Assembly (NCBI GenBank): GCA_036924285.1
Contig: JAYKYS010000009.1
Coordinates: 13,516,001 to 13,580,000 of the forward strand
Reading direction: 5' to 3'
Origin: Asterella californica
Taxonomy: Eukaryota > Streptophyta > Marchantiopsida > Marchantiales > Aytoniaceae
DNA: 64,000 nt
Below, one piece after another: positions 1 to 57,631 of the stretch (position 1 is its first letter; every line of letters begins with the position of its first letter). The translations under genes and the position numbers were made by a program. The notes under the pieces were generated by a model, which saw only the letters and a program-made list of their open reading frames with translations, ran no database searches and was not told the origin of the DNA.

Positions 1-1906
1 GATGCTAGGAAGACAGAGTTGTTCTTAGGGGCTCTGGATGAGTTCACAACAGATAGGCTTTGTTTCATGTTGGTTGATCGAGGGGCTGAAGGGGGAAGGG
101 GGAGTTACATCTGATTGGAGGAGAGTAGAAGAAGCAGTATCCACCCTTGCTAGACAACGTCGTGGTAGGATGGTACTGCAGCCAGAGACCTTGCCAGAGC
201 AGAGAGTAGCTCCTCATGTTCATGTAGCTCCTCCTGCAATACCTCAAGCACCTATTGTGATTCCTCAAGCACCTATAGTGGTTCCCCAAGTGGTTCCTCA
301 AGCGCCTGCAGTACCTATCCCAGCATAGAGAGGACCTAGACAGCAGCAGCGACCTGTTGAGAACCGAAATCAACATAACTTGATAGAAGAACTTACTCAA
401 TAGTTGAGAGATTTGAGGGTTGAGATGGCAGACTTGAGGAGAGATCAACGACCTGTTGCACCAGGTGCCCGACTTGTAGGAGGAACCTTTACCAGGAGAT
501 GTATTTGGTGCAATAGTCCAGATCATCTCAGAGGAGACTGTCAAGACTTGGCGGTTGCCTTGCGAGAGGGCGTAGTCAACTATCAAAACAACAGATTGTA
601 TCTAACCGCCACTGGGCAGCCTCTGAATACATATTTTGGAAGAGGAGGAATGAGGAGTTCTCTTCCAGCACTTACTGGTGTGAATACCACAGCAATGACT
701 GCGGGTTCTGCGGAGGCTGATGTATATACTAGGAGAGTTGAGGTGCGCTCTAATCCAACTATGGTTGAGCAGGCTGTTGAGGTTCTGGTTGAAATGATGA
801 AGAGAGGTGCTGAAAGCATTAGGAGAGCTACTGGATGGAGAGACCCAGTAGATGCAACTTCTATTCGAGCGTTTTTAGAGACGAGTGGTGAACAAGATGC
901 CATGATCGAAGACAAAAGAAGACGGGACGCTTCTGATTTAGATGCAAGAGTACCAGAGGACAGTGACCGTCGGAGGGTTACAAGGAGGAGAGCAGCGGAA
1001 CCATCACCATCTGTACCAGCTGGAAGATTTCCTGCTGCAGAGGATATACCTTCTACCTCTACAGCTCCACCACCTGCAGTAGATCCTATGGAAGGTGTGC
1101 AAGATTTGCCACAGGAGACTACTGCTACAGATAGAGTACGGGGGAAGAGGTTTACAGCGCAGGAGAAGGAGAAAGCTCCAGCTTACAAGTTAGCGGCAGA
1201 CATCGAAACAACAACAGACTTGCGTGCTGTTCTAGAGCAACGCATTTTGGATGCTAGAGTTGAGTTTACTCTTCGTGAAGTGCTTGGTATCGCAAAGAGA
1301 GAGTTTCATGAGTTGATAATAGACATCATGAAGAGAAAGAGACAGATATTGACTGAACAAGTAAGTAGTCAGATGGTTGGAGCAGTAGATGCTATTGGTA
1401 TTGATCAGTTCGGAGATGATAAGTATGAGGCATGGGTTGCTGGTCCAGTTGTTATTGAGAATGAAGATGAAGAGTTTGAAGAGGATAGGTCAGGCGCAGA
1501 CAGCGATTTCAAGGAAAAGCACTGGGCAAGAGCGACAACAGAGACGCAGGTTCGGCTTGGAGGACTTTCTGAACCAGTACTTGCACTTGTGGATCACGAG
1601 TCGGAGATCAACATCATTTCCAAGGAGGTGTATGAAAAGGGACAGTGACCAATCGAAAGGAATCATGGTTGGGTGCTTCGAGCTGCAAATAACCAAAAGG
1701 GTGAGTTATACGGAGCTTGTCCCAATATGCGTGTAAGGATTGGAGATGTAGAGGTTGATCAGCATTTCTTTGTACAGTCATCTGCCTCCTATCCTGTCAT
1801 ACTGGGTCAACCATACATCACCGCTGTTCGGATGGAGACAAAGGTGATGAACGATGGGTCTCATTATGCTAGAGTTCGGAGTCCTGATGACAAGTACTCA
1901 GTATAG
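1..1906 (+). pseudogene. gag: Gypsy A gag-protease, decayed
   Basis: Gag forms the particle and the aspartic protease processes it. Reading begins in frame 1 (about 1-100) and shifts to frame 2 near position 100. Frame 2 is then broken by TAG at 326-328, TAG at 401-403 and TGA at 1646-1648, with recognisable Gypsy sequence on both sides of each stop. From the ATG at 404, a CCHC zinc knuckle sits at residues 33-46 (Cys33, Cys36, His41, Cys46). The protease active-site region reads ALVDHESEINIIS, just before the TGA at 1646. The related families I know have Gly where this copy has Glu, which is a likely damaging change. The protease continues in the same frame to 1906. Confidence 0.85.
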
Positions 1907-2186
1907 TTTTTGACGGTTTGTTCAAGACATGAGCGGAACAGATAAACCCTTAGAGATTCTCAGACGAAGAGATGTAAAGTTTTTCGCAATCCACTCCTGT
2001 AGGGCGGGAAGACAGGGGTGTAGAACCTACTGTTGAGGTCCCGTCAGAGTTGGAAGCGAGACATGTACAAAGGTCTGGATACATGTGTGGTGTACAGAGT
2101 TGGCAGTCTGGATTGCTGATGTTTGAGGCAGATGGGTGGAGCCGATTTACAAGAGTTGAAGATATGAAGGAAAATACAAAAGATGG
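1907..2186 (+). other. Protease-RT linker of Gypsy A, frameshifted
   Basis: This is the spacer between protease and the open pol frame. From about 2113 to 2170 the peptide LMFEADGWSRFTRVEDM is readable in frame 1. It matches a similar peptide on the - strand at 11154-11400. The pol frame itself has a stop at 2157, so one frameshift lies between about 2165 and 2184. The true pol polyprotein probably began upstream. Confidence 0.6.
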
Positions 2187-5100
2187 ATGGTGAAACAGAT
2201 ATCAGTGTTGTGGCGTGTAGGAGTTCTATCTGAAGACGAAGTGGTTTCTGGTTTGTTTGAAGAGTTTATGTCTGTACAGTCAGTTGTTGGTTGGTTAGAC
2301 AATGTGAGTAGATTGATGGAGAGGAAAAATAGTGTGGCGGTGATCCCTATCCACTCTCGATGCATATATGAGGAGATTGCTACATATCTGCAGTTCTTTC
2401 CTCATCCGATGCAGAATAATGAAGGGAGAGGAGCAAGTTGTTGGTGTGCACTCCCTCAGGAAGCAGACGTCCATGCAAAGTACAAATCTGTACTGAGAAA
2501 GGTAAGACCGGTAGCAGCTCAACTACCTGCTAACTCTCAGCAGCAAGTACAGTTAGTGGGGACTGAGCCTATATTGCGTGATCATAGACGAGTAGGGCAC
2601 CAGTTTATTGAAGAGACATTGAAGGAGCTCCAGATAGGAGGGGGTGATTTCTTGACTGAGGTCGAGAAGACAGTGTTTGAACATATGATAGTGAAGCATG
2701 GTAAAGCATTCTCTTTTTCAGCAGAGGAGATAGGTTGTGTGGACCCAAAGGTTATAGCGCCTATGGTTATATTCACAATCCCTCATGTGCCTTGGGACCT
2801 GAAACCGATCCCAGTTCCTCGTGCTTTGTTGCCTAAACTCATCGAGTTGTTGAAGGAGAAGGTACAGATGGGGATACTTGAGCCGTCCATGGGGCCATAT
2901 TCTAGCAGATGGTTCACTGTACCCAAGAAGTCAGGAGCTTTGCGTTTTATTCAAGACCTACAGCCTGCGAATAACGTAACCATTTGTAACGTTGGGACGG
3001 GTCCTGTGATTGAAGAGGTAGCAGAGGCATTTGCAGAGAGAGCTATCTATTCAATAGGAGATCTATATTCTGGTTATGATCAGTTCCAGCTGGCTATGGA
3101 GAGTAAAGATTTAACTACTATGCGTACGCCCTTGGGATTGATGCGGATGTGTACTCTTCCACAAGGAGCGACGAACTCGGTGGCTCATATGCAGAATGCG
3201 ATGCATAAAGTACTAAGGGAGTTTGTACCTGATGTTACCATTCCATTTCTAGATGATATTCCTATAAAGGGTTGCGCGGTTGAAGACAAGGATGAAGCAG
3301 TACTTGCGAACGGATGTAGAAGGTTTGTTGCGGATCATATTAGGGATGTAGAACGTATCTTGACTCGTCTGGAGGAGGTACATCTCACCCTGTCAAGAGC
3401 TAAGTCCAAGTTTGGTGTGTCTGAGATTTTAGTGGTTGGACATCTGTGTGGCGCTTTTGGAAGGCGACCAAACCCCGAGAAGGTTGAAGCCATTGCAAGG
3501 ATGGCAGACTGTAGGAATATCACAGAGGTTCGACGCTTTCTAGGTGCTTGTGTATTTTATCGTTTATCCATTCCTCATTATGCTCATGTTGCTGAGCCTT
3601 TGTATGCATTATTGAGGAAGGGTAAGAGGTTTATATGGACCTTAGTCCATCGAGAAGCTATGAATAGGTTGAAGGAGGCTCTACAGTCTCCGCCTGTTTT
3701 GAGAAGAGTAGACTACGGATGTGAGAGACCTGTCATTGTCACAGTATATACTAGCCCAAAGGCAATTGGTTGGGCGATAGGTCAAGATGATGCAGATGGA
3801 TTGCGGCTTACCTCTAGGTTTGGAGCTAGGATCTTGACAGACAGGCAACGAGATTATCCTCAGGTGAAGCGTGAGTTGTGGGGAGCGGTGACAGCAATGA
3901 AGACAGATCGTGAGTTTCTGATTGGTGCTCATGTAGTCCTGGAAACGGATTGTCTACCTCTACTAGACATGATATCCAACTGTACCACGCCAGACATAGC
4001 AATGTTACGTTGGATTGCCTACATTAGAAGCTTGAATCCAGAGCTGAAGCATATAAAAGGAAAGGAGAATATAGTTGCAGATATGTTGTCGAGGGCTCGA
4101 TTTGTAGATGAGGATGTCATGATTTTAGAAGCTGAGGAAGAAGAGAGAAAGGATGCTCAGTGTCAGGTTAATCGACGAGCTACGAACTTGGGGCCTTTGA
4201 TGTTTAGAGAAGAGCTTTACACAGGTAGACTTCGTGACATAGGATATTATCTGAGCTTGTTGGAGAGGCAAGAGAGGTGGAGCAAGGTTGAGTTCAGAGA
4301 GATAAGGAAACAAGCTTACAACTATCTTCTGCATGATGGGTATCTTTGGAGACGACCACAGAGGAGAGATGGGATGTTCATACGAGTAGTGGACGATCAA
4401 GAGACTAAGCAGCAACTAATGAAGGAGTTCCATGATACCTTATGGGCCGGACATCGAGGGATTTGGGCTACCTACACCAAGTTGAAGGAGAGGTATTGGT
4501 GGAAAGGTCTGTATCAGGATGGGGTGAACTACGTCGGCTCCTGCTTGCATTGCCAATTCTATTCAAAGATGCGGTATAGGGATGGTCTCGTGCCAACTTA
4601 TCCGCCTTGCATTCACTTTCAGTGGGTTCTCGACTTAGTGGTGATGCCTCTGGGGTTATGGGGCATGCGATATTTGGTTCTGGCTCGTGAGGATCTCTCC
4701 AACTTCGTAGAAGGGCGAGCTTTGAGGACGAAGACCACAGAGGGGATATGTAAGTTTGTTCTTGAAGATATTATCTGCAGGTATGGGTCTGTAGGAAGGC
4801 TACGGGCAGATAGGGGAGAACTACGGGGTACAGAAGTGAAAGAGTTTTTTGCTCGATATGGTGTGAAGCTCAAGCTTACTACTGCGATGAATCTAGAGAG
4901 GATTGGCAAGAGCGAGCGAGGACATCCATCGATAGTTCAGGCTTTGGTGAAGGCGTGTGATGGTAAGCATAGAGAGTGGCCCAGGTTACTCCCTTTTGCT
5001 TTATGGGCGGATAGAACAACACATTGTTCTACTACAGGGTACATGCCTGTTGAGTTAATGTTAGGACAGAAACCAATGATGCCAGCAGAAGAAGACTTTC

Positions 5101-5600
5101 CTACCTGGGCTACCTTGCCATGGGAGGACAATATGGACCATGTGCAGCTTCTCTCACTACGAACCAGACAGCTAGAATGTAGAGAGGAGGATCTCGCTGA
5201 AGCACAGCGACGGCTGAAGGCGGCTCGACTAGGGAACAAGGAGAGGTTTGATAAGACTCATAGACTTCGACCAAAACTGATACAAGTTGGGGACTGGGTG
5301 TTGGTATACGATAGCACGTTGGAGAACCAACACTCTACAGTTCGAAAGTTTTCGAGAAGGTGGTTCGGTCCGTACCTTGTCTCTGATGTACATCAGAATG
5401 CTACTTATTCCTTGCAAGAGCTAGATGGCACGCCCTTAAGACTTCCAGTTGCTGAGAAACGAGTGAAGTTATTCAAGAAGAGAGGGGAGACTGTGGAGCT
5501 AGCTGAGTTCTTAGGTTCAGAGCAGACAAGAGCAAATGAAGACGTTTCTGAGGCGGTCGAGGAGAGCGAAGATGATTTGGAGGACCACGAGGGTCAATGA
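2187..5600 (+). CDS. pol: Gypsy A pol: reverse transcriptase, RNase H, integrase
   Basis: An open frame of 1137 residues copies element RNA into DNA and integrates it. RT occupies roughly residues 230-400, with the first catalytic Asp in GDLYSGYDQ (Asp292) and the FLDD box at 354-357. RNase H (about 515-640) has Tyr521 where the related copy at 54484 has Asp, so the first catalytic acid is lost. The integrase zinc region ends in SCLHC, and the catalytic triad is Asp816, Asp875 and Glu910 (34 residues between the last two). A GPY/F-type end domain (RRWFGPYLV) follows. The ATG at 2187 is only the first in this frame, and homology continues upstream in another frame. The frame has no internal stop, unlike gag. 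Confidence 0.93.
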   Translation: MVKQISVLWRVGVLSEDEVVSGLFEEFMSVQSVVGWLDNVSRLMERKNSVAVIPIHSRCIYEEIATYLQFFPHPMQNNEGRGASCWCALPQEADVHAKYKSVLRKVRPVAAQLPANSQQQVQLVGTEPILRDHRRVGHQFIEETLKELQIGGGDFLTEVEKTVFEHMIVKHGKAFSFSAEEIGCVDPKVIAPMVIFTIPHVPWDLKPIPVPRALLPKLIELLKEKVQMGILEPSMGPYSSRWFTVPKKSGALRFIQDLQPANNVTICNVGTGPVIEEVAEAFAERAIYSIGDLYSGYDQFQLAMESKDLTTMRTPLGLMRMCTLPQGATNSVAHMQNAMHKVLREFVPDVTIPFLDDIPIKGCAVEDKDEAVLANGCRRFVADHIRDVERILTRLEEVHLTLSRAKSKFGVSEILVVGHLCGAFGRRPNPEKVEAIARMADCRNITEVRRFLGACVFYRLSIPHYAHVAEPLYALLRKGKRFIWTLVHREAMNRLKEALQSPPVLRRVDYGCERPVIVTVYTSPKAIGWAIGQDDADGLRLTSRFGARILTDRQRDYPQVKRELWGAVTAMKTDREFLIGAHVVLETDCLPLLDMISNCTTPDIAMLRWIAYIRSLNPELKHIKGKENIVADMLSRARFVDEDVMILEAEEEERKDAQCQVNRRATNLGPLMFREELYTGRLRDIGYYLSLLERQERWSKVEFREIRKQAYNYLLHDGYLWRRPQRRDGMFIRVVDDQETKQQLMKEFHDTLWAGHRGIWATYTKLKERYWWKGLYQDGVNYVGSCLHCQFYSKMRYRDGLVPTYPPCIHFQWVLDLVVMPLGLWGMRYLVLAREDLSNFVEGRALRTKTTEGICKFVLEDIICRYGSVGRLRADRGELRGTEVKEFFARYGVKLKLTTAMNLERIGKSERGHPSIVQALVKACDGKHREWPRLLPFALWADRTTHCSTTGYMPVELMLGQKPMMPAEEDFPTWATLPWEDNMDHVQLLSLRTRQLECREEDLAEAQRRLKAARLGNKERFDKTHRLRPKLIQVGDWVLVYDSTLENQHSTVRKFSRRWFGPYLVSDVHQNATYSLQELDGTPLRLPVAEKRVKLFKKRGETVELAEFLGSEQTRANEDVSEAVEESEDDLEDHEGQ

Positions 5601-5645: not shown

Positions 5646-6133
5646 TGTCGTATTGTACATAGGTCTGTACAGTGAAAAGTAATGCAAAGAGATTTTTTTC
5701 TATATTGTGTACAGGAAGCTGCCCTGCAGCTTAACAAGCTAGGCAGGAGCTAAGCTGGGGCCATGCTTGACAAGCTGCCCCCTAGCTTGGGTTGGAATAT
5801 CACCCCTGAGGGAGTCGAAAGACATCAGAATGTAAAGCTCGACGAGGAGAGCAACCTCATGCTTCTAGTTTTGATAGAAAGTGTTTTAAGCAATAGTTAG
5901 TACGAGTTTTAGGCTGTGAAATATATGAAAGAGGGAAATCTGTTGATTCTGGCTCGAGACTCGAACTCAGAATCTGATAGCGTGGGTGTGTAGGTGTTCA
6001 TGAATACTATAGTTTTGACTCTTTATTCATTAAAACAGAGTTGTATAGAGAAGTTAGCACAGAAAAGGCTAGTAAAGACTTTACAGGAAGATTTCCTTAG
6101 TAAAGCATATGTACAGATTGTAAAACCTTTTTG

Positions 6134-6220
6134 AACGGAACCAAAGGCCATCCCAGTGATAGGGCGCCTGCCTAGGAGGGAAGTGGTCTCAAGATCAATC
6201 CCTCCTGGCCTCTGGTTCCT
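6134..6220 (+). repeat. tRNA-like (SINE head-like) sequence inside LTR A
   Basis: About 80 nt look like a tRNA gene: an A-box-like AGTGATAGGGCGCCTG at 6155-6170 and a B-box-like TCTCAAGATCAATCCC at 6187-6202. The flanks GAACCAAAGGCC and GGCCTCTGGTTC can pair as an acceptor-like stem. The same block is present in reverse at about 57063-57146 in the solo LTR, so it was part of the LTR before these copies diverged. I read it as a tRNA-derived SINE captured by the LTR. No poly-A tail or target duplication was identified. Confidence 0.5.
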
Positions 6221-6342
6221 ATTCTGGCATGTTGGCCTCCCGGATGGGAGTCTATGTTGGGTATGCAGCCATGTCCTGTATACCTAGGGGCGGGAGACCG
6301 GTATCTTCCTTAATCGTGGGCTTCCTGGCCTAAGCCTCCGCA

Positions 6343-6471
6343 TGCCATCTTGAATATACTATGGGAGATACCTGGTGCGCATATGGGGGGGCTGTAAGCC
6401 CTGTGGGGCAGCCTCATAAGTGTTAGGGCTTCGGCCTACATTGGATGGCTTGTAGTATATTCAAGATGGCA
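6343..6471. repeat. 19-bp inverted repeat within LTR A
   Basis: TGCCATCTTGAATATACTA at 6343-6361 is repeated as an exact reverse complement at 6453-6471. The second arm lies in a 40 bp segment (6444-6483) that is absent from the solo LTR A, where the flanks are contiguous near 56832. It looks like a template-switch insertion. Confidence 0.7.
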
Positions 6472-6840
6472 TCAAGAGCACATGAAACTTTTGCTAATTA
6501 GTTAAATAAGCATCGAGTAGGCTTGCGATGGAGAATGAGGTTATGTGAACCTTTATTAGTGTAGGGGTAGAGTTTGTGGAGACAACTGTGAAACTTGTAT
6601 TAAAAAGGGGTCAACTTTGTAAATAATGCTATGTACGCATAAGGACAGCAGAGGGGCAGCTTAAGCTAGGGCCCTGCTTGTGATAAGTGACTGCACTTAT
6701 AAGAACAGCAGGGGGGCAGCTTAAGCTGGGGCCTTAACTTTTAGGTTTAATACCTGCGGCGGCTGGAGATCGGGGGACACTTTTTCAAGGGATTTTTCTG
6801 AGAGAACTGAGGCGGAAGGAGGAAAAAGGAGCAGAATTAG

Positions 6841-7050
6841 GGATTGAGGAGAGGAGACGCTGAGAAGCTTGGAGGCTGAGTGGGGATCGATTTTTCTGAC
6901 AGAATTGAGTGGATTGAGGAGAGGAGACGCTGAGAAGCTTGGAGGCTGAGTTGGGATCGATTTTTCTGACAGAATTGAGTGGATTGAGGAGAGGAGACGC
7001 TGAGAAGCTTGGAGGCTGAGTGGGGATCGATTTTTCTGACAGAATTGAGT
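6841..7050 (+). repeat. Three tandem 70-bp repeats in LTR A
   Basis: GGATTGAGGAGAGGAGACGC begins near-identical units at 6841, 6911 and 6981, each 70 bp; one G/T difference between units is visible. The solo LTR at 55655-57631 holds a single, more diverged unit. The expansion is therefore local and recent. Confidence 0.93.
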
Positions 7051-7473: not shown

Positions 7474-8585
7474 TCAAGAAAGACTCTCGCCACGACACCG
7501 CTCAGATCTGCGAGAGGTAATCGATGCACTAGTCACCTCCCCTTGCAACTGATCTGACATAGACGCCAAGGTCTGGGACAAAGTATCTAGTGGATGTGGA
7601 AGATCCACATATCTGGATGAGTCAAACATACGCTGCAATAGCACACGCTCATCATGTGTAGAAACTACAATAGTTCCACTAGGCTGTGTTACGTGGACTC
7701 CAGCGTTAACAACAGCTCTATGTGCAACAGACTCTGATCTGGAATCAGTGACTTCTCCAGATCCTCCACTCAACGTACTACTCTGAGGTACTACAATGGA
7801 CTAACTCCTTGGTTCTACAGTAGGTACAAGGATGGCTACGACAGGTGCAAGTGCAAACCAAGACTGTAGCTCATCAAACACGACATCTCTACTGATATAG
7901 AACTGCTTGGACGAAGGATTGTAGCACCTATATCCTTTCGTATCAGAAGCATAACCAAGGAAGATACATCTATCTGCTTTCGTATCTAGTTTCTTACGTC
8001 TTTCATCAGGTATGTGCACATAACAGATACATCCGAAAACTTTAAAGAAAGAGTAATCAGGCTTACTGCCTGTGAAGACCTCCATCGGTGTCTTGCTGTG
8101 GACTGCCGCTGTAGACGTCCGGTTCATCAGGTACACCGCACATGAAACAGCTTCTACCCAGTAAGGTCTAGGCATGGTCTTCTCATTCAACATCGCACGA
8201 GCAGCTTCTGCTATGTGTCTATTCTTGCGCTCTGCAACCCCGTTCTGCTGCGGATTGTAACTGCAGGTCTTTTGGCGTCGAATGCCATGCTCACCAGATA
8301 TGCATCGAACTCTCCAGAAAGAAACTCGCCTCCTCCATCAGATCTCAGACAGAGGATAGATGCTCCAGACTATTTCTCCACCAACTTGCGGAAAGTCTGA
8401 AATGCTGACAATACTTCGGCAGAGGACTTGTTTCTCAACAAATAGATCCAAGTATAACGCGAATGATCATCAATGAACGACACGAAGTACTGGAAACCGG
8501 TCATACTTGGCTGAGAAGCAGTCCATACATCAGTGTGAACAAGCTCCAGAAGCTTGTTCGCTCTACTACCTGATCCCTTAAAGGG
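7474..8585 (-). pseudogene. Copia integrase and downstream linker, broken
   Basis: The - strand reading continues from the protease ORF past an in-frame TAG at 8586-8588. It shows integrase core motifs LVHTDVW (first Asp) and LRSDGGGEF (second Asp). A frameshift near 8280 leads into the frame of 7801-8193, with PYWVEAVSCAVYLMNRT and FKVFGCICYVHIP, both typical of the Copia integrase C-terminal half. A further frame change leads into 7474-7773, a Ser-rich linker that normally precedes RT. No RT follows, so the element is cut off here. The product is not functional. Confidence 0.85.
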
Positions 8586-9220
8586 CTATCTAGCTTGCTT
8601 GCCGAATTGACATGCTGCACAGACTCCAGTGGGCTCACTGGATTTGAATTTGGGCAGACCTGTAACCAGGTCAGAACTCGGAAGGCTTTTCAGCCTCTGA
8701 AAGTTCATGTGTCCAATTCGCTTGTGCCAGATGTCAATGTCAGACACTACTGGACCACTCTGTCCATACATGGCAGCCTGTAACTTAGGCGCAGATGCAT
8801 CTAGTTTAAACAGCCTACCACTCTTGATACCTCGAGCTATGACAGTGCCACTCGAATCTTCAATAAAGCATCCATCTTTATTGAAGCGCACTTGTAGACC
8901 CTGCTCTATCAACTGTCCTACAGATAGCAGGTTTCTAGTCAATGTGGATACATGTAAGACATTCCGTATACCAGTAAACGTTGAAGCAGGAATGTCAAGT
9001 GGAATGTTACCTTTGTGCTGGATCTTGTGCTTGGTGTCATCTCTTGTCACCATAAACTGTGGAGTCTCCACAGGCTCGAGTGAACTAAACCACTCCCGAT
9101 GGGAAGTCATGTGACTGGTGACGCCGGAGTCGATCACCCAGTCAGTCTGTGGCTCGAAAGCCGCATAACTCTGATGCGTAGTAATCAGCAACTGCTCCGA
9201 ATAGACATGCTCAGTGACTA
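8586..9220 (-). pseudogene. Copia protease and GAG-pre-integrase domain
   Basis: The open frame from 9191 to 8586 starts just after the inversion breakpoint. WVIDSGVTSHMTS is the Copia aspartic protease site (Asp-Ser-Gly at residues 21-23 from the ATG at 9191). The pre-integrase zinc region follows as IWHKRIGHMNF and CAACQFGKQAR, an H-x4-H and C-x2-C pair. The frame also reads upstream of the ATG to about 9220, so that ATG is not the natural start. The reading ends at a TAG that interrupts the integrase. Confidence 0.88.
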
Positions 9221-9823
9221 TTGCTGCAGCAGTTCAACACCGTGAAGAAGGGGTCGATGTGCATCAACGACTATGTGAACCATGTCAAGCAGCTTGCGGA
9301 TCAGCTATCTTTTGTCAAAGTCGAGATTGATCCCACTGTCTTGATCGGAGCCACATTGCAGGGACTGCCTGCAGAGTACAAACAGTTCATAACATCGATT
9401 TCGACCAGAGAACCTCTTCCGCGGTTTGATGAGCTTGTTCTTATGATGTTAGGAGAGGAGGTGCGCCTACTGGGGAGTTCTACTTCGACGGGTCAGCAAG
9501 AATCTGTCTATTTTGTAGGTTCTGGAGGATCTCGAGGTAGAGGTCGTGGCAAAGGTGCTGGACATGGACGGGGTCGCGGACAGCAACAGCAATCGCAGCA
9601 GCAGCAAAATCCGCAGAACCAGCAGAACCAGCAACAGTCTGGTTCTAACAACAATCAGAGAAGAGCGCCTGGTTCCTGCAACTACTGCAAGAAGCAAGGC
9701 CACAATGCGAATCAGTGCTACAAGAAGCAGAACGATCAGAGACAACAACACGACAACAACCCCCAACAAGGTAACAGCAATCAGCAAGGCTATGCCAGCT
9801 TCCGTAGCTCTGTTCCGGATTGA
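9221..9823 (+). pseudogene. gag: Copia gag C-terminal half, inverted
   Basis: Two hundred residues read on the + strand, opposite to the rest of the element. They begin MLQQFNTVKKGSM, the gag core, then have a Gly/Arg-rich stretch, a long Gln-rich stretch, and a CCHC knuckle (CNYCKKQGHNANQC). The missing gag N-terminal part is on the - strand immediately to the right (9824-10140), and protease is on the - strand immediately to the left. The segment is therefore a block of about 600 bp that flipped in place. It is open over its whole length, so the flip is recent relative to decay. Confidence 0.88.
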
Positions 9824-16936: not shown

Positions 16937-17971
16937 ATGGCGCAGCAGCGACGGGGTAGTAGCTGGGCGGAGCTGGACAGGAGGAGATTATACTCGGAGA
17001 AGAAGAAATCATTGGTACGAAAAGTATCATGGACTGAACGCAAGTTGTTATGGGAATCAATGGTCGACGATGCGACTGGCACCGAGCAAACGTTAGTGAT
17101 GCTTGTAGACGAATTAGAAGACCGAGTAAGCAAAAACGGTTCCGGAATTCTCTCCGCACTCTTCGATTGCCTCAAGTGTGCCATGAGATCACAATCTTCC
17201 GCGGAGAAGCCAAATATTGTGATCAGTCGCTTCTACCAATGTCTTCTACCACATCTCATCGGATTCGTGTACATGAACGAGCCGTTTTGCCATTGGGACG
17301 AGCCCCAGGAGCTTCTGAACAGCGACGAAGTAGTGCTGAAAATCTTGATAATGGTACAGGACCTATTGAGCGCAGAACTGAAGTTTCTAATCGAACCTCT
17401 TGTCGAGGACCGCTTCACGAACGCAGTGGCACTTCTGCGCGTTGCGACAATGGGCTCTGACGAGACAACGTACTTTCATCGAACGCATAAACATCGACCA
17501 ATTCCAAAGAGGGAATTCATGCCTTACGGAGTCCACCACTTCACCCAATGCATCGCAGGCGAGGATGGAACAGACAAATGTATCACTTGTGGCAAACCTG
17601 GAGCGCGAACAAAGTACCGATGGCTCGCAGTTCTGGTCGAGAACTTCGGCCAAGTGAACTGGACGAACTTCGAGTTTCTGTCTCAGATTCTCGAGAACCC
17701 TCGAAACTTGCGAAAGTTACCGCTCGATGCAACGGAGGCTATACTATGTTATGTTTCGAAGATAATCCAATTTCTGGATCCGGACTTGGCGAAGATTTTC
17801 CTTCCCGGAGCGTTGGCAGTCATGGAGCTACTGGTTCGCAAAGACGAACCAGTGCATCCAGAGAGGGGAGTCCGGCCGAGTGACCGTTTCATATCCGTGG
17901 CATTAATGATCGACAAGCATTTGGACATAATCTTCGGATACGTTCTGACACCCGAAGCCAAGATTGGTTGA
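16937..17971 (+). CDS. Uncharacterised 344-residue protein
   Basis: An intact single-exon frame from ATG at 16937 to TGA at 17969, the only long ORF in the window that does not look transposon-derived. I do not recognise the family. The first 45 residues are basic and charged. Most of the rest looks alpha-helical and hydrophobic in a repeat-like way (for example 94-115, 130-172, 228-300). A central His/Cys-rich stretch (His181, 184, 186, 200, 201; Cys205, 215, 218) includes CITCGK and could bind zinc. No signal peptide or membrane segment is evident. There is no co-oriented neighbour. Long frames on the other strand and in other frames here are shadows, as expected from GC-rich coding DNA. 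Introns before or after cannot be excluded. Confidence 0.7.
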   Translation: MAQQRRGSSWAELDRRRLYSEKKKSLVRKVSWTERKLLWESMVDDATGTEQTLVMLVDELEDRVSKNGSGILSALFDCLKCAMRSQSSAEKPNIVISRFYQCLLPHLIGFVYMNEPFCHWDEPQELLNSDEVVLKILIMVQDLLSAELKFLIEPLVEDRFTNAVALLRVATMGSDETTYFHRTHKHRPIPKREFMPYGVHHFTQCIAGEDGTDKCITCGKPGARTKYRWLAVLVENFGQVNWTNFEFLSQILENPRNLRKLPLDATEAILCYVSKIIQFLDPDLAKIFLPGALAVMELLVRKDEPVHPERGVRPSDRFISVALMIDKHLDIIFGYVLTPEAKIG

Positions 17972-22200: not shown

Positions 22201-23408
22201 ACCTTGATGCTAGCAACATCTAGTATGTGAAGGTATCTTCAGTCACGAATGTCCCTCCGTACCATTCTCGTCCTTCCGCACCTTCATGAGACCTGATGCT
22301 GTTATGATGGTTTGTAAAACTGAAATTAAATGTATTAAAATGACTACAAATTCTCCTCTGCTTCATTTCTACGTAACAAGACGGCCCGAAAAGCCATAGT
22401 CAGATGATAAAGAGCAAAATATTCTTCATATGTTTGTCCATGTTTGTCCATGTTTGCTCCACTCTTTTTCGCAGTTTGACTGAACACATAAGTACAAAGA
22501 GGAGAAATATATAGATTGCGTCTTGACGTGAGATCCATATATAGTGCAACTTAGTTATGTGAGAACCAGATATAGTCTAGGGACTGTTCTGTCACTTTAT
22601 AAAACCATAGCTACAGTCCTCTTCGTTGTGAATAACTTTTGTTCCGGATTGCTATTTAAACATGAGATGAAGAGGAAGATGCTCTAAAGCTGTTTATTCA
22701 TATGACTGCTTATTTCACTTCAAGCAAGTTCGGATTGTTTTCGTTCACAAGATACGTTTTATTTTCTTCCCATGTACGGTTTGCTGACATGGCGGTGTTC
22801 GCTTTTTTTTTTGGGCTTTATTTCTCCTTCGTTTTTGTGCACCTTCCATTTCGCCCCGCGATAAAAGGTTTGTTCACTGGCCCGAACTTTTCGGTGGTTT
22901 TATTTAACCCGAGTTGCCGCCGTTGTTTCTTTTTTGCCTCCTCTTACGTTTCACGCATTTCTTTGCTTCGCCTGTTTCCATACTGGATATTATCACATGG
23001 TATGGCATTTTTTTGTCCCACCTTTGCGCATAAAATGGCCACGGTCGGCCTCGATAACTTTATTCATATAAGGAAAATCAGTACACTGAAAACATAGTGC
23101 TTATCTGTACGCTCAGGCTCCTACACAGAAAATCTTTACGGCGTTGACGGTACTCGAAAAGCTAGCCAATACACTGCACATCTGCGTTCTACTGCTGCTA
23201 CGCAGAAACACCCTGCTATTTACTACCTGCGTTGCTGCTGGGTATCCATCTACACTGGTAATCCTCGCTTGCTATCCATCTATATTGCTCGTGGACGGTC
23301 CATCGTTGCTGCCATCTGCTGCCATCAAGCGCAGAAAACATATCAGAAGACAGCAATGGCCGACAGCAAGTAATGAGTACACTGCGATAAGCAATAGCAA
23401 AATACAAG
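22201..23408. other. Spacer between PIF relic and Rep ORF; start of GC-richer island
   Basis: 22201-22700 is AT-rich and probably belongs to the PIF element 5' side, with a short leftover frame at 22344-22538 on -. From about 22840 the GC content rises and stays higher to about 25930. The stretch 23100-23400 has CTGCTGCTA and CTATCCATCTA-type short repeats. It may carry a last exon or 3' UTR of the Rep gene (see donor site at 23429). Confidence 0.45.
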
Positions 23409-24368
23409 TTACAGAAAAATCGAGTTACCTTCTTCTGCACGTCTGGCCGTCATGTCCCGAAGCATCGCACTGCACAACGGCATATACTCAGGAAATGCAC
23501 GAACAGACTCAAACAGTGGGCATGCTGCATCCATTACGGGGGATGGAAGACTTAACAAGCGCTCCTCCTCCTCTGGACTGACTGCTTCGAAGTAGCGCCT
23601 GCGAGGTTGCTGGTTGGAAAAAAAGATGGCATCTATGTCCCTCATCGTTATTGTTTCCGGATGCACTATAGACTTCCATAACGCGTCACTTCTTGCCCGC
23701 TGTATCCCGTTCCTCATCAGCCACCTGCAGGAAGGAGAATACTTTCCTGACCGGACCATCGATCGCAGCGAAGACCTTAACGTGCTTCCGAGGGGATGCC
23801 TGCATTTATATTTGTTAAACTGTAGGGCTCTCTGCAGAACATTGTTACAATTCAACTCCACTCGATTTTTAGTATCTGCCGCACCCAGGAGAGTGAACAG
23901 CTCTTCGCCATCTGCGACCATGGAGTCAGTAACGTTTTTCATGCAGGACTGATGATGGACCTCAGACTTATCCTTCATACAGTACCCGAGCATACCGACG
24001 AAGGTGTGGAGGCCACGGTTCGTAAGTCTCTTCACACAAACCTCACCGCCCAAAGGCCTACTAGCACCCTTCCAACCTAGAACGCCGATCAATCTCTTCT
24101 TCACCTCTACAGGGCTAGAAGCTCGTAGAGATAAAACTCCCTGGACATGTATGTGCAACAGAGCCCCACCCCTCTCGACAGATATTAAACCAGCCTCGCA
24201 TTCGCTATGAAGAAAGTTGCACAAAGGGACCCAACAAGACAGATCGAGGTCACCCCCTGTCTGACCTACAGTGACAGAAACCTCAAGATTTTTGCTTGCC
24301 GTCTCCCTCCGTGGAACACTCGGACGGTTCGCTGCTCGCTTCGCGCGAGCTGCTTGCCGCATTTGCAT
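23409..24368 (-). CDS. HUH-type rolling-circle replication endonuclease (Rep-like)
   Basis: A frame of 319 residues. A beta-strand-like EVSVTVGQ at 29-36 stands where HUH motif 1 is expected. LLHIHVQGVLSL has the metal-binding His72-x-His74, and MLGYCMKDK has the nucleophile candidate Tyr129 with Lys132 (YxxK). Spacing of the three motifs fits a single-Tyr HUH nuclease, which nicks single-stranded DNA and stays covalently bound through Tyr. About 190 residues follow, helical and Arg-rich, with no Walker A/B helicase motifs. The ATG at 24368 is probably not the true start, because homology-like sequence continues in ORF 24283-25008 in another frame. Near the end, AG|GTAACT at 23429 is a good splice donor, so the natural C-terminus may lie on a further exon. 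Replitron and plasmid Rep are the nearest families I can name. Confidence 0.65.
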   Translation of the reverse strand: MQMRQAARAKRAANRPSVPRRETASKNLEVSVTVGQTGGDLDLSCWVPLCNFLHSECEAGLISVERGGALLHIHVQGVLSLRASSPVEVKKRLIGVLGWKGASRPLGGEVCVKRLTNRGLHTFVGMLGYCMKDKSEVHHQSCMKNVTDSMVADGEELFTLLGAADTKNRVELNCNNVLQRALQFNKYKCRHPLGSTLRSSLRSMVRSGKYSPSCRWLMRNGIQRARSDALWKSIVHPETITMRDIDAIFFSNQQPRRRYFEAVSPEEEERLLSLPSPVMDAACPLFESVRAFPEYMPLCSAMLRDMTARRAEEGNSIFL

Positions 24369-25008
24369 CGGAAGGGTACTGACAGTGCCTGCAACCTATC
24401 CTGTATATCCGAGGGTTGACACTGCGGCAGACGCACGGCAAGTACTTGCTTCGATACACAGAAATAACGACAGGCTTCAAATAATCAGTGTCATCCTGAC
24501 GAATGTACTTGGGATAAGAAAAAACAGTTCCCTTTCTATCCCTGAGAACCAGCCAGAAATCTGTGGACTCCACGTAAAAGAAGGGACCGATTATACACTG
24601 TAGACACTCGATAGCTCCCGAAAAAGCATAAGAGATTTTAACGTAATCAGAAGCAGGCAGAAGAAACTCGGGTGGCTTCAAGCAGAAACGGAAATCTATG
24701 TAAACGTAATTCCGCGTTAGGTACAGGTCCTGCTCCGAAAAAGAAAGAAAACACGCACACAACAAGGGAAAAGGAGCAGGAGTAGATGGAACGGCAAACT
24801 GATCGAGTTCGCACTTGTAACCTTCTGTACCATGGTTACAATAAACTTGTATACTATCCAAGATAGAAGTTTGCTGAGGAGACGCAGAAGGCGAGAGGTC
24901 GGACGATGGTGAAGGTGTCGAGGGAACTAACAAAGGGCTAGACGGGCTGGATGAGAGGTCAGGCAGAGTGTCATCATCGGTCCCATCCAGTACAGATTCG
25001 GTGGCCAT
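24283..25008 (-). CDS. ORF preceding Rep: probable N-terminal part of the same protein
   Basis: From the ATG at 25008 (good context, G at +4) 241 residues run to TGA at 24283. Residues 1-50 are Ser/Pro/Asp-rich and probably disordered. The middle looks beta-rich and aromatic. The end has CVC and CRHC (C-x-C then C-x2-C, about 14 residues apart), a possible zinc-binding unit. The ORF stops at TCT-TGA. A +1 step there reads straight into EVSVTV, the first strand of the HUH domain in the 23409-24368 frame. Possible explanations are a real +1 frameshift signal, an indel in a dead copy, or an unrecognised small intron. The frame is open further upstream to 25383, but that part looks low-complexity and non-coding. 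Confidence 0.5.
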   Translation of the reverse strand: MATESVLDGTDDDTLPDLSSSPSSPLLVPSTPSPSSDLSPSASPQQTSILDSIQVYCNHGTEGYKCELDQFAVPSTPAPFPLLCACFLSFSEQDLYLTRNYVYIDFRFCLKPPEFLLPASDYVKISYAFSGAIECLQCIIGPFFYVESTDFWLVLRDRKGTVFSYPKYIRQDDTDYLKPVVISVYRSKYLPCVCRSVNPRIYRIGCRHCQYPSDANAASSSREASSEPSECSTEGDGKQKS

Positions 25009-25569
25009 CGACGAAAAACAAAGAGAAGTGGCAAGACAAGTACCAGGAGCTGTACAAACATGAACAGCACGGACGTGCAAGCGGACAGTCGACGATTCGC
25101 CATCCTGGAGCAAGTAATGCGAATGTCGGCAGGTACATACCGTGCGCACAACCGCGAGGCAAAGAAGACGTGCAACCAACCGAAGAAATGAAGAAACACT
25201 CGTTCCATCATGCTGCCCCTGAAAACGCCAAACCTCAAGCACGATTCGTCGATTGCTCGGTTTTCCTCCTGAAGGAGAACCGAGCAAACGACCAAATGTA
25301 GTCAGTGAAAAACAAAAGAAGTCAAGTTCCGAGCACCAATCCCCCAAGAATCGACAAAGAACATCCGCGAACGACGACTGCAATCCACGAACGAGAGACG
25401 ACGAGAAGAAAAATGTGACCAGCGACGACGAGAAACAAGCTTTCCACGAGATCCTGAAGGAAAGAAGGAGCCCGATGCCATGCCAAGCAAAACAGCGGAA
25501 AATGCCACCGCCAGCAATAGAGCGTGGAGCGTGGAGCGAGAATCCGCGGCCACGCCGTCCTTCGTAAAA

Positions 25570-25779
25570 CCGCGGCGCACGCGTCGTCCGCGTCTCTGCA
25601 TGCCACGTTAAATCGGCTATCGCTCCGCGGCCCCCAATGTTAATACATCGGCTATCTCTCGGCCGCGGACCCGAACGTTAAAACCGCACTGCACGCGTCG
25701 TCCACGTTTCTGCATGCCCGAAATGAAGTTAACAACGTGAATACATCGACTATCGCTCGTCCGCGACCCCCAACGTTTA
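25570..25779 (+). repeat. Iteron-like direct repeats upstream of Rep
   Basis: Three copies of a unit of about 31-35 bp starting ATCGGCTATCGCTC or a close variant and ending CCCAACGTTA-like occur at 25612-25642, 25647-25680 and 25745-25779. A second motif, GCACGCGTCGTCCGCGT followed by CTGCATGCC, occurs twice (25576-25603 and 25690-25717). They lie within 1 kb 5' of the Rep reading frame, where binding sites for Rep or subterminal transposon repeats would be expected. Confidence 0.6.
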
Positions 25780-25930
25780 CGCGAGAAACAAGGCGTTTTC
25801 TTCCCGCCGATAAACAAGCCGGGTAAGTGGAGGAGATTAATAAACCGCCAAGAGCCTCCCGGCAGCCAACCGCCTTTCAAGAAAACACCGTAACGTCCCT
25901 CGTTCGTCTTTATCACGCCTTTATCACTTG

Positions 25931-27802
25931 GGGATGCTTATTCATATGTTCTAATCTTTCCGGCGAGAAAGGTTAGAACCTATCCGTAAAATGAAATAAT
26001 CTGAGAATTAAGATCTCAGTCTTATTTTCCCAGTAACGCATCAGTCCTAACTCCACTTATGAGTTATATTTTGCTGAGTTTGTTACTCCGAGACGGGTTA
26101 ACATATATCACTTAAAAATTTATTTAATTTTTTCATAATATTTTATTATAATATATCTTTATAATATTTACATATTTTCTGATAAGAAAAAACAAAATTC
26201 ACTGTACAAGGCCGTTGGGGATGTTTATTTATTTAACTACGGTAGCATTAATGATATTTAGTCCCTAGCTTTGTAAAGACACCCTAAGTTTCAAAACTCT
26301 ATTGCATAGAATGCACACTAAGTTTGTCGTTAACTCTTCAGTTATCGGATGTGTAGTGGGGATGCCCTAAGACTAGGTCTGTATGTGTCATCATCCTTGT
26401 GCGATTGGATGAGATAATTTCTTATTCGAATGTCTCATACAAGTTGTATTGGCACATTGACCCTCCAAACACATGCTCAATTGTTTCATGATCGTTTTCC
26501 ACGCTTGTTAAAGCCCTTATGTCCAAACACTCTGTCAAATTCTAGTGTTTCGACATGAACTCTCTAGTCGCAATCCACATTGTTTAGTCCTAAGAATCAC
26601 ACAATTTTACGTTGAGAACATTGTACTTCAAGATTGAGATTGTCCATAAAATATAACATTGTTTTTTTCATTGGAGTGGCTATCAGGTAAGATCATTCAT
26701 ATTGTTTCTTCTTATCACGAATGTGTACATACAAATTTTGGTTACAAAATCTCTAAGTTCTCATCTGTTCATAGAGAGATTGATATTTTATATAATCTAT
26801 GAGATAACAGAAACCACCATAGGTTCATAACAATCATTTCAAGCATGACGGATGTTGAATCTCGAACTAAATATACATTTTTCTGAATATCATAAACTAT
26901 GAAGAAGTTCATAAAGCAATAGGTTAACGTTTAAATTCACTCAAACCATTATAGAAAAAATTAACGTTACAATAATCTCTAGGCTTATAGTTTCAAGCAC
27001 TTTGATACATGTTAAAGAAAATTTTTGCTTCAAGATTTTGTAGTTATACTTGATATTATTTTAATGAGAATTCATATAAACCGAGTCGAAGTACAAGGAA
27101 AAAGCCACTAGATAGAGTGTTAGAAAGGATTTCACGCAAGCAAAAGCAAAGTAAAGAGTAGGTTTTGTGAGGTAAGGGATCTCTTTCGATCACAACCTCA
27201 GTTATATCAAATTTTCCCTCTCTCTTTGGATCCAAAAGACGGAGCAGATGAAATACTTCACTGTGAAGAATTATAGTCATCACCCTTGTAGATGAAATAT
27301 ACATGCAACAAGAACTTATGTTCGAGGGAAAGAAAAGACAAGTGTGAAGAGAAAAGCAAAATCTAATAACATAATTGGACCAGACAATGCAATGAGGTCT
27401 TATCAAAGTTTTGGATCTATTAATCAATGTCAGATTAATAACTATTTATGAGTTATTAATATAATAATTATATAGATATATAATAATCTCAAAATTAAAT
27501 TTTCAAAAAACAAATATCATAAGTTCAATGTATACCAGAACTTCCAAAGAAAACCTATAACCTGTGCGGGTTGAAACGCCCTCCAAGAACACATAAAACT
27601 TACTTCTTGTTCTATCAAAAAGCAAATGTTATTATCGTTAAATTTATTATATAAACTTTTCCACCAAACCGCTTAGGTGATAAATTAAACAGCTTTACAT
27701 TATTCTTCTCTTCCTAAGATGGAAGAGGTGAATATACATCTAAAATGCACTTATAGACAAACGTTTAAATAAATCATAAAATAATCATGGATAATTGAGG
27801 AT
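25931..27802. other. AT-rich intergenic region
   Basis: No gene recognised. TTGGGGATGCTTATT at about 25927 and TTGGGGATGTTTATT at about 26214 are near-identical direct repeats, and GTGGGGATGCCCTAAG occurs near 26355. They may be ends of small DNA elements, but no matching inverted ends were found. Confidence 0.4.
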
Positions 27803-55654: not shown

Positions 55655-57631
55655 TGTCGAGGAGAGTCCTTCTCAAGAAGGGCGAGCCTTCTGGCTGTGA
55701 TAATTCGTGAGGTAAGAGTAGAAATCAAATACCAAGACAAGAGCCAAGGCTGGTAGTACACAACGGCTGAAGTCACTCACATAGACTACTCTCTGACCAT
55801 AGGTCACTTGCTATTTTTCTGATCAAGTCTCAGGAGACAGATCCACCTTCAGACACAGCATATAAGAGAAACATGAACTCACGGTGCTTTATTTCTCTTC
55901 CAAACACACTCAATAGTCTTCCACATACATCAATTTACAACCTATCTCTACTCAGCGCCTTACGTTGATCACCGCAGATGCCAAACAGCCAATTCCCACT
56001 CAACTAGTCTTCTCTCCAGCAGATTTCTCTCCAAAACCCACAACCCTATGAAGATCTGAAACCCCAATGCCTTGTATCTCTTCTTACAACAGCTTCAGCA
56101 CTGAAATTTCTCAGAAGAACCTGATCTTCTCAGTCCCTATCTTCTCCTCCGCTCAGATAGATGCTCCTAGCTCACTAGATTCACCTCAAACAGCCTAGTA
56201 GGTAAATTCAAGCTCTTCCAACTCTTAATCCTCCCTCTGCGTCAATCTCCCAACTGAAACTACCAAGAATTTAACCCCACATCGATCAAAAGTCCTCTGC
56301 AGATTATCAAACGATCTCCCTCAATAAAACAACCTCCTGTCCGTTCAGAAGGTAGTTCTGCCTCCAAATTGTATAATAGATAAAGTTCCCGCTCCCAAAC
56401 ACTTGTCCACCTCAGTTTTGTCAGAAAAATTGATCTCTCCCAGCCTCCAAGCTTCTCATGCACTTCCCTGATCCTAAATCCCTAATTCCCTTCCTTCCGC
56501 TTCAGCTCTCAGCTCTCAGTCCAAAAATCGCTTGAAAAGTCTCCTCGATCTTCAGCCGCCGCAGTATTTAACCTAAAGTTTTAAGGCCTCAGCTTAAGCT
56601 GCCCCCTGCTGTCCTTATAAGCACAGTCACTTATCAGAAGCAGGGCCTTAGCTTAAGCTGCCCCCCTGCTGTCCTTATGCGTACAAAGCTTTATTTACAA
56701 GTTTGACCCCTTTTTAATACAAGTTTCACAGTTGTCTCCACAAACTCTACCTCTTCACTAATGAAGGTTCCCATAGCCTCATTCTCCATCGCAAGCCGAC
56801 TCGATGGTTATTTAACTAATTAGCAAAAGTTCCTCAATGTAGGCCGAAGCCCCAACACTTATGAGGCTGCCCCACAGGGCTTACAGCCCCCCATATCCGC
56901 ACCAGGTATCTCCCATAGTATATTCAGGATGGCATGCAGAGGCTTAGGTCAGGAAGCCCACGATTAAGAGAGATACCGGTCTCCCGCCCCTAGATATGCA
57001 GGACGTGGCTGCATACCCAACATAGACTCCCGTCCAGGAGGCCAACATGTCGGAATAGGAACCAGAGGCCAGGAGGGATTGATCCTGAGACCACTTCCCT
57101 CCTAGGCAGACGCCCTATCACTGGGATGGCCTTTGGTTCCGTTTAAGAAAGGAAAATTTTCTGTACATATGTTTTCCTGAGGAAATTTTCCTGTAAAGTC
57201 TTTACTAACCTTTTCTGCGCTAACTTCTCTATACAACTCCGTTTTTAATGAACAAGGAGTCAAAACTATAGTATTTGTGAACACCTACACACTCACGCTA
57301 TCAGATTCTGAGTTCGAGTCTCGAGCCAGAATCGACGGATTTCCCTCTTTCACATATTTCTCAGTTTAAAACCCGTACTAACTATTGCATAAAACACTTT
57401 CTGTCAATTTGGAAGCATGAGGTCGCTCTCCTCATCGAGCTCTGCATTCTGATGCCCTTCGACCTCTTTCAGGATGATATCTCAGTCTAAGCTAGGGGGC
57501 AGCTTGTCAAGCATAGCTCTAGCTTAGCTCCTGCCCAGCTTGATAACCTAGGACGCAGCTTCCCGAACAAATGCTAGTTGAGTGCCTTCTGAAGTTCCAT
57601 TTCATCATGTGGAATGTCACGCACTATGACA
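55655..57631 (-). mobile_element. Solo LTR of Gypsy family A inserted in Gypsy B pol
   Basis: 1977 bp with TG...CA ends (TGTCGAGGAG ... CTATGACA), flanked by ACGC at 55651-55654 and 57632-57635 (ACGCT if the boundary is shifted by one base). Reverse complement matches LTR A at 5646-7400, including the tRNA-like block and the 19-nt motif CATAGTATATTCAGGATGG near 56925. It carries one copy of the 70-bp unit instead of three. Confidence 0.93.

What the first reader, a model, noticed from the sequence alone, without database searches (positions are those of the whole stretch)
22840..25930. HUH Rep-encoding element in a plant-like nuclear genome
The - strand ORF at 23409-24368 carries HIH (His72, His74) and YCMK (Tyr129, Lys132), in the order and spacing of single-tyrosine HUH nucleases. 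There is no helicase domain, so it is neither a Helitron (Rep plus large Pif1-like helicase) nor a usual CRESS/geminivirus Rep. It sits in a GC-richer island of about 3 kb next to a PIF relic and comes with an upstream ORF and iteron-like repeats. Replitrons, recently described mainly from algae, are the closest concept; a land-plant member would extend that group.
Basis: partly seen in the sequence, partly recalled or inferred. Interest (0 to 1): 0.82.

Follow-up and report, generated by a model that had tools for sequence, protein, structure and literature searches.

The report
A replitron transposon with intact Rep
This is a roughly 3 kb jumping gene of the recently described replitron group, carrying an intact DNA-nicking enzyme; replitrons are already reported from several non-seed land plants, so it is a good new example rather than a new kind of thing.

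Summary
The 319-aa minus-strand ORF (23409-24368) is a replitron transposase: Pfam Replitron_HUH matches at E=5.3e-14, 53.1 bits, cut-off 28.5. Eleven relatives were found, 11 of 11 with that domain. Two corrections. (1) The conserved metal motif is not His72/His74: position 72 is Arg in 10 of 11 sequences, while Gln76 (11 of 11), Glu65 (10 of 11) and His74 (9 of 11) are conserved, as in the His-U-Gln motif of circovirus Reps. Tyr129 is present in 12 of 12. (2) A land-plant replitron is not an extension: a review lists liverworts, mosses, lycophytes and ferns. The likely element is 22694-25948, between the only two copies of an 11-bp direct repeat in the window, near compositional borders; the ends are not proven. 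It also holds a probably coding 241-aa ORF with no relative found, the main feature that might be a new variant. Copy number, target-site duplication and host were not established: the whole-genome search did not complete.

The parts
23409..24368 (-). Replitron transposase ORF (319 aa): HUH/HUQ nuclease domain (aa 41-154 matched) plus C-terminal replitron domain (aa 201-250 matched)
   Evidence: PF21859 E=5.3e-14, 53.1 bits (cut-off 28.5); PF21860 E=1.6e-4, 22.4 bits (cut-off 27, below it); 11 relatives
24141..24176 (-). Codons 65-76: putative metal site Glu65 and His74-Val75-Gln76
   Evidence: E65 10 of 11, H74 9 of 11, Q76 11 of 11, H72 only 1 of 11; compare His52/Gln54/Glu44 of duck circovirus Rep (PMC9973303 passages)
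23973..23984 (-). Codons 129-132 YCMK: putative catalytic tyrosine Tyr129 and Lys132
   Evidence: Y129 12 of 12, K132 11 of 12
24283..25008 (-). ORF1, 241 aa, upstream of and overlapping the transposase ORF by 86 nt; probably coding, no known relative
   Evidence: Three-base periodicity chi 20.8 (part not overlapping Rep) against mean 7.3, maximum 20.4 in 56 background segments; no homologue with E<=1, no Pfam, no PHROG
22694..22704 (+). Left copy of the direct repeat TTATTCATATG, candidate 3' end of the element (relative to its genes)
   Evidence: only two copies in 64 kb
25938..25948 (+). Right copy of the direct repeat TTATTCATATG, candidate 5' end of the element
25906..25927 (-). Tandem 11-bp repeat GTGATAAAGGC GTGATAAAGAC just inside the right end; candidate Rep-binding iterons
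   Evidence: 10/11 tandem in 3 of 5,000 simulations of that 101-bp stretch, 4.2% of 2,000 for any period 8-14, and in 5 of 640 real 100-bp stretches of the window; the exact 9-mer GTGATAAAG occurs nowhere else in the window
25565..25777 (.). Two divergent ~100-bp tandem units near the gene-upstream end
   Evidence: blocks 78-88% alike (D1, D2, D4); 69.6% over the whole self-match
25245..25295 (.). Strong internal stem-loop upstream of ORF1
   Evidence: 23-nt arms, 87% complementary; -18.7 kcal/mol as DNA; third strongest of 57 clusters in a plus-strand 46-nt scan of the window
23059..23064 (-). First AATAAA downstream of the transposase stop codon, candidate polyadenylation signal (five in the 809 bp searched)

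Best explanation
A structurally complete replitron of about 3.25 kb (22694-25948), genes on the minus strand. Shown: a replitron-family Rep ORF without a premature stop, with the family's Glu, His-U-Gln and Tyr-x-x-Lys residues; a second ORF upstream; direct repeats of the same 11 bp at both presumed ends; small tandem repeats just inside one end. Inferred mechanism: Rep docks on the small tandem repeats, a metal held by Glu65, His74 and Gln76 activates the DNA, Tyr129 nicks within one 11-bp repeat and stays bound to the 5' end, host polymerase extends from the free 3' end and peels off the element strand, and the same sequence at the other end is cut to release a single-stranded copy that Rep joins to a new site (copy-and-paste). 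With no helicase found, unwinding would come from the host. ORF1 would be an accessory, perhaps DNA-binding, protein; that is a guess. The replitron identity of the protein alone I hold at about 0.95; the confidence below is for the whole statement, ends and mobility included.
For: PF21859 at 5.3e-14 and PF21860 at 1.6e-4 in the expected order; 41% identity over 256 aa to P0002; 11 relatives, 11 of 11 bearing PF21859 in the database annotation, and 10 of 10 scanned here above its cut-off; E65/H74/Q76/Y129/K132 conservation; predicted beta-alpha-beta-beta-alpha-beta-alpha order with residues 73-82 on a strand and Tyr129 on a helix, the element order described for a smacovirus Rep; the three best Foldseek matches among solved structures are duck circovirus Reps, E 2.0e-3 to 5.1e-3; viral matches include CRESS Reps and a microvirus initiator; the 11-bp repeat pair is unique in the window and lies near both compositional borders.
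Confidence: 0.6

Rival explanations
1. A replitron-derived host gene or immobile relic: the Rep ORF persists but the element no longer moves, and the 11-bp repeat is coincidence.
For: Single copy in the window; no target-site duplication seen; the repeat is not decisive statistically.
Against: Catalytic set complete and long ORF intact; an upstream ORF and end-like repeats kept with it; CpG high at both ends of the segment.
Confidence: 0.2
2. A replitron whose true ends lie elsewhere nearby, for example including the hairpin at 25948-25979, or with the left border near 22769, so that the 11-bp repeats are near but not at the ends or are chance.
For: A 13-bp stem starts at the right repeat (z -2.56 for the 150-nt stretch); the left likelihood optimum is 75 bp inside the repeat.
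Against: The hairpin is one of 57 clusters in the window that fold at least as well, so it is not exceptional; the repeat pair is unique in the window.
Confidence: 0.17
3. An integrated CRESS virus or plasmid-like sequence rather than a transposon.
For: Fold and motif resemble CRESS Reps.
Against: No superfamily 3 helicase or capsid domain in Pfam or PHROGs scans of the Rep and ORF1; the Pfam scans place the protein and 10 of 10 relatives scanned in the replitron family; no relative among pattern-matched IMG/VR stretches with either query.
Confidence: 0.02
4. A Helitron fragment.
For: Also a eukaryotic HUH transposon.
Against: One tyrosine with a lysine three residues later, no helicase found, replitron Pfam match and no Helitron match.
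Confidence: 0.01

Closest known systems
Replitrons (Craig 2023 PNAS; Pfam PF21859 Replitron_HUH and PF21860 Replitron_C)
   Same: HUH domain, weaker match to the C-terminal domain, one catalytic tyrosine, no helicase found, likely size within 0.9-4 kb, short direct repeats at the presumed ends, no terminal inverted repeats.
   Different: His at position 72 where the 10 relatives with that region have Arg; only 37-46% identical to the 11 relatives over aa 28-155; carries an extra ORF of unknown kind. Whether other replitrons carry such an ORF could not be checked: the primary paper is not held.
CRESS-virus Rep nuclease domain (circovirus)
   Same: His-U-Gln metal motif with an upstream Glu; similar fold order; a tyrosine, with a lysine three residues on, on the last helix of the predicted domain (that circovirus Reps share the lysine is recalled).
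   Different: No helicase domain found; no sequence match to a solved Rep by phmmer or profile.
Helitrons
   Same: Eukaryotic HUH transposons without inverted repeats; many plant Helitrons also carry an additional gene for a single-strand binding protein (PMC4683698, search listing only).
   Different: Helitrons have a large helicase; none was found here, and ORF1 has no Pfam match.

Membership tests
Replitron | Replitron HUH endonuclease domain | tested here: met
   PF21859, 53.1 bits against cut-off 28.5
Replitron | Replitron C-terminal domain | tested here: inconclusive
   PF21860, E=1.6e-4 but 22.4 bits, cut-off 27
Replitron | Single catalytic tyrosine with conserved metal residues | tested here: met
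   Y129 12 of 12; Q76 11 of 11; E65 10 of 11; H74 9 of 11
Replitron | No helicase | tested here: met
   No helicase match in Pfam scans of the Rep, ORF1 and four other open stretches inside the element
Replitron | No terminal inverted repeats | tested here: met
   Longest exact inverted match between the flanks is 10 bp and not at the ends
Replitron | Short direct terminal repeats, 5-11 bp | tested here: inconclusive
   11-bp pair at 22694 and 25938, unique in the window, but ends not proven
Replitron | Target-site duplication, 2-8 bp | tested here: inconclusive
   Flanks read...AAAGCTGT before the left repeat and TTCTAATC after the right one; only 1 bp shared. If the repeats are the exact ends this feature is not met; the ends are not proven
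Replitron | Length 0.9-4 kb | tested here: inconclusive
   3,255 bp if the repeats are the ends
Replitron | Dispersed copies in the genome | not tested
   The genome search 'own' did not answer in 12 tries; one copy in the window
Helitron | Rep with two tyrosines plus large helicase | tested here: not met
   Y129-C-M-K132, one tyrosine; no helicase found
CRESS DNA virus | Rep with superfamily 3 helicase and a capsid gene | tested here: not met
   No such domain in Pfam or PHROGs scans of the Rep and ORF1

The most novel reading that the evidence does not exclude
A two-gene replitron: a transposase of the His-U-Gln type working with a second, overlapping element-encoded protein of an undescribed family, a layout that would parallel Helitrons carrying their own single-strand binding protein. 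If the host also proved to be a seed plant, it would extend the known range.
Probability: 0.3. Interest if true: 0.5.

Novelty: new member of a known kind. Interest (0 to 1): 0.36.

Why it matters
Replitrons are recent and little covered: only 3 papers of the held library mention them. A copy with all putative catalytic residues, a candidate nick sequence repeated at both presumed ends and candidate docking repeats gives a concrete substrate for a biochemical test of how these elements move. The conservation pattern points to His-U-Gln with an upstream Glu as the metal site, shared with circovirus Reps, which bears on where replitrons came from. The extra ORF raises the question of whether some replitrons carry helper proteins.

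Tried and rejected
Relatives with DNA context: IMG/VR scans with the protein and with the 12-row alignment, and one GTDB scan, matched 22, 41 and 24 stretches by pattern but none encoded a relative by tblastn. So no second element could be aligned to fix the ends.

ORF1: no protein relative among 382 candidates at E<=1, no Pfam or PHROG; a single-sequence model had pLDDT 46.6 and its Foldseek matches are noise (best E 0.093).

A PIF-like terminus (TTA then GGGCATCCCC, minus strand, ending at 26367) suggested that the replitron sits inside a PIF element; the only other matches to its 16 bp in the window were four with 4 mismatches, none between 17 and 22.7 kb, so this was dropped.

The hairpin at the right end looked attractive (z -2.56) but it is one of 57 clusters in the window that fold at least as well.

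Sequence comparison with solved structures found nothing relevant, either with the protein (no hit at E<=10) or the profile (3 hits, none a Rep). VIA-align rows do not separate Reps from ferredoxin-like folds.

Host identification: Rfam and tRNA scans gave nothing and I used no collection that names plants; host left open. Papers: 'replitron' is in 3 held papers, of which matching passages were seen (in the third only the reference list); the primary paper is not held. What I recall of it is marked as recall in the report.

The rivals' odds were rescaled with it.
Full report
The observation. The minus-strand ORF 23409-24368 is real, 319 codons from ATG. In 2,000 order-2 Markov simulations of the element's own composition the longest ATG ORF on either strand reached that length in 0.45%. 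The GC-rich island is real: 44-54% over 22750-25999, against 35-48% in the windows to the left and 29-38% to the right. CpG observed/expected steps up at about 22.7 kb (0.61 in 22501-22700, 1.36 in 22701-22900), runs at 0.4-1.1 through the coding part, is 1.2-1.9 over about 25.0-26.1 kb and falls beyond. A likelihood segmentation puts the optimum borders at 22769 and 25920; the repeat-based ends 22694 and 25948 score 6.6 and 3.7 log units lower. Other 2-kb windows also reach CpG ratios of 1.02-1.04, so a recent insertion is only weakly suggested.

What the protein is. Pfam PF21859 (Replitron_HUH) matches residues 41-154 at E=5.3e-14 (53.1 bits, cut-off 28.5) and PF21860 (Replitron_C) matches residues 201-250 at E=1.6e-4 (22.4 bits, below its cut-off of 27). 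A single-sequence search of 5.8 billion proteins gave one relative among 1,899 candidates, P0002, 41% identical over 256 aa. A profile of the two gave 11 relatives (P0002 again and ten more) among 7,994 candidates scored, a capped set; 11 of 11 carry PF21859 in the database's own annotation. I scanned 10 of the 11 (P0002-P0011; P0012 was not included): 10 of 10 matched PF21859 above its cut-off, and 3 of 10 (P0002, P0004, P0007) matched PF21860 above its cut-off, with P0003 below it.

The active site. In the 12-row alignment the counts are: Tyr129 12 of 12, Asp133 12 of 12, Lys132 11 of 12, Gln76 11 of 11, Glu65 10 of 11, His74 9 of 11, His72 1 of 11, where the other 10 have Arg (P0004 lacks that region and is left out of the counts of 11). 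So the family motif is His74-U-Gln76, not His72-U-His74. A duck circovirus Rep holds its manganese with His52, Gln54 and Glu44 (PMC9973303, passages); here Glu65, His74 and Gln76 have nearly the same spacing (9 residues from Glu to His, against 8). P0002, the best relative, has Gly and Arg for Glu65 and His74 but keeps the tyrosine, so it is probably a dead copy.

The element. The longest direct repeat shared by the two flanks is TTATTCATATG at 22694-22704 and 25938-25948, which with neighbours matches at 13 of 14 positions and occurs nowhere else in the 64 kb on either strand. A direct match that long is found in 18.8% of 500 simulated pairs of the whole ~850 x 900 bp flanks and 1.45% of 2,000 for 200 x 200 bp about the site; the smaller region was chosen after the repeat had been seen. 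No inverted repeat longer than 10 bp joins the flanks. The flanking bases share only 1 bp, so no target-site duplication is visible (read). The span, 3,255 bp, and the repeat length fit what the review gives for replitrons, 0.9-4 kb and direct terminal repeats of 5-11 bp; the review's target duplications of 2-8 bp are not seen (PMC10741241, passages). Just inside the gene-upstream end lies a tandem pair, GTGATAAAGGC GTGATAAAGAC (25906-25927, minus strand); 11-bp tandems this good arose in 0.06% of 5,000 simulations of that stretch and in 4.2% of 2,000 if any period of 8-14 is allowed, while 5 of 640 real 100-bp stretches of the window hold one. A strong internal stem-loop lies at 25245-25295. 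The profile found no second copy in the window.

ORF1. The upstream ORF (24283-25008) encodes 241 aa and overlaps the Rep ORF by 86 nt. The three-base periodicity of its non-overlapping part (20.8) just exceeds all 56 background segments (maximum 20.4, mean 7.3; the Rep ORF itself gives 15.0), while the open stretch upstream of its ATG does not (5.1). In simulations 3.8% of elements had a longest ORF of at least 241 codons. A nucleotide model trained on the Rep ORF scored ORF1's own frame best of the three forward frames but below two of the three reverse frames, which counts against it. No relative was found. I take it as probably coding (about 0.6), function unknown beyond a guess at DNA binding.

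How it probably works. HUH enzymes cut single-stranded DNA with a tyrosine and stay linked to the 5' phosphate (PMC13231165, passage), and Reps cleave and rejoin single strands in rolling-circle replication (PMC9973303, abstract in the listing). Host-driven strand displacement and joining to a new site are inferred here from general knowledge of the superfamily. Having the same sequence at both ends would let one enzyme start and stop at one kind of site. Craig 2023 reports copy-and-paste insertions of a replitron in Chlamydomonas and high copy numbers in non-seed plants; that is recalled from its abstract, not seen here, as the paper is not held.

Novelty. The review lists liverworts, mosses, lycophytes and ferns as hosts, so a land-plant replitron is expected. 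This copy is divergent (37-46% identity over residues 28-155 to the 11 relatives) and has the extra ORF. I rate it a new member of a known kind. A new-variant claim would need ORF1 to be shown in other copies.

Limits. The host was not identified. The whole-genome search did not complete 12 times, so copy number, true ends and empty sites remain open.

Noticed in passing
404-5597 (+): Ty3/Gypsy retrotransposon with a 1,137-aa pol ORF and an upstream 414-aa ORF carrying DUF4100.
   Followed up: partly
7804-9820: Copia pieces on opposite strands: gag on plus (9221-9820), pol pieces on minus (7804-9191), so the element looks rearranged by an inversion.
   Followed up: no
16937-17968 (+): Intact 344-aa ORF with no Pfam match above cut-off (best PHD_pln, E 0.065); identity unknown.
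   Followed up: no
26331-26370: Lone PIF-like terminus, minus strand TTA then GGGCATCCCCACTAC, with no close partner in the window.
   Followed up: partly
   Followed up: partly
5708-6913 and 56406-57569: Inverted pair, 85% identical over 1.2 kb; several further pairs join distant parts of the window.
   Followed up: no
P0002 (database protein): Closest relative keeps the tyrosine but has Gly for Glu65 and Arg for His74, so it is probably catalytically dead although its frame is open.
   Followed up: partly
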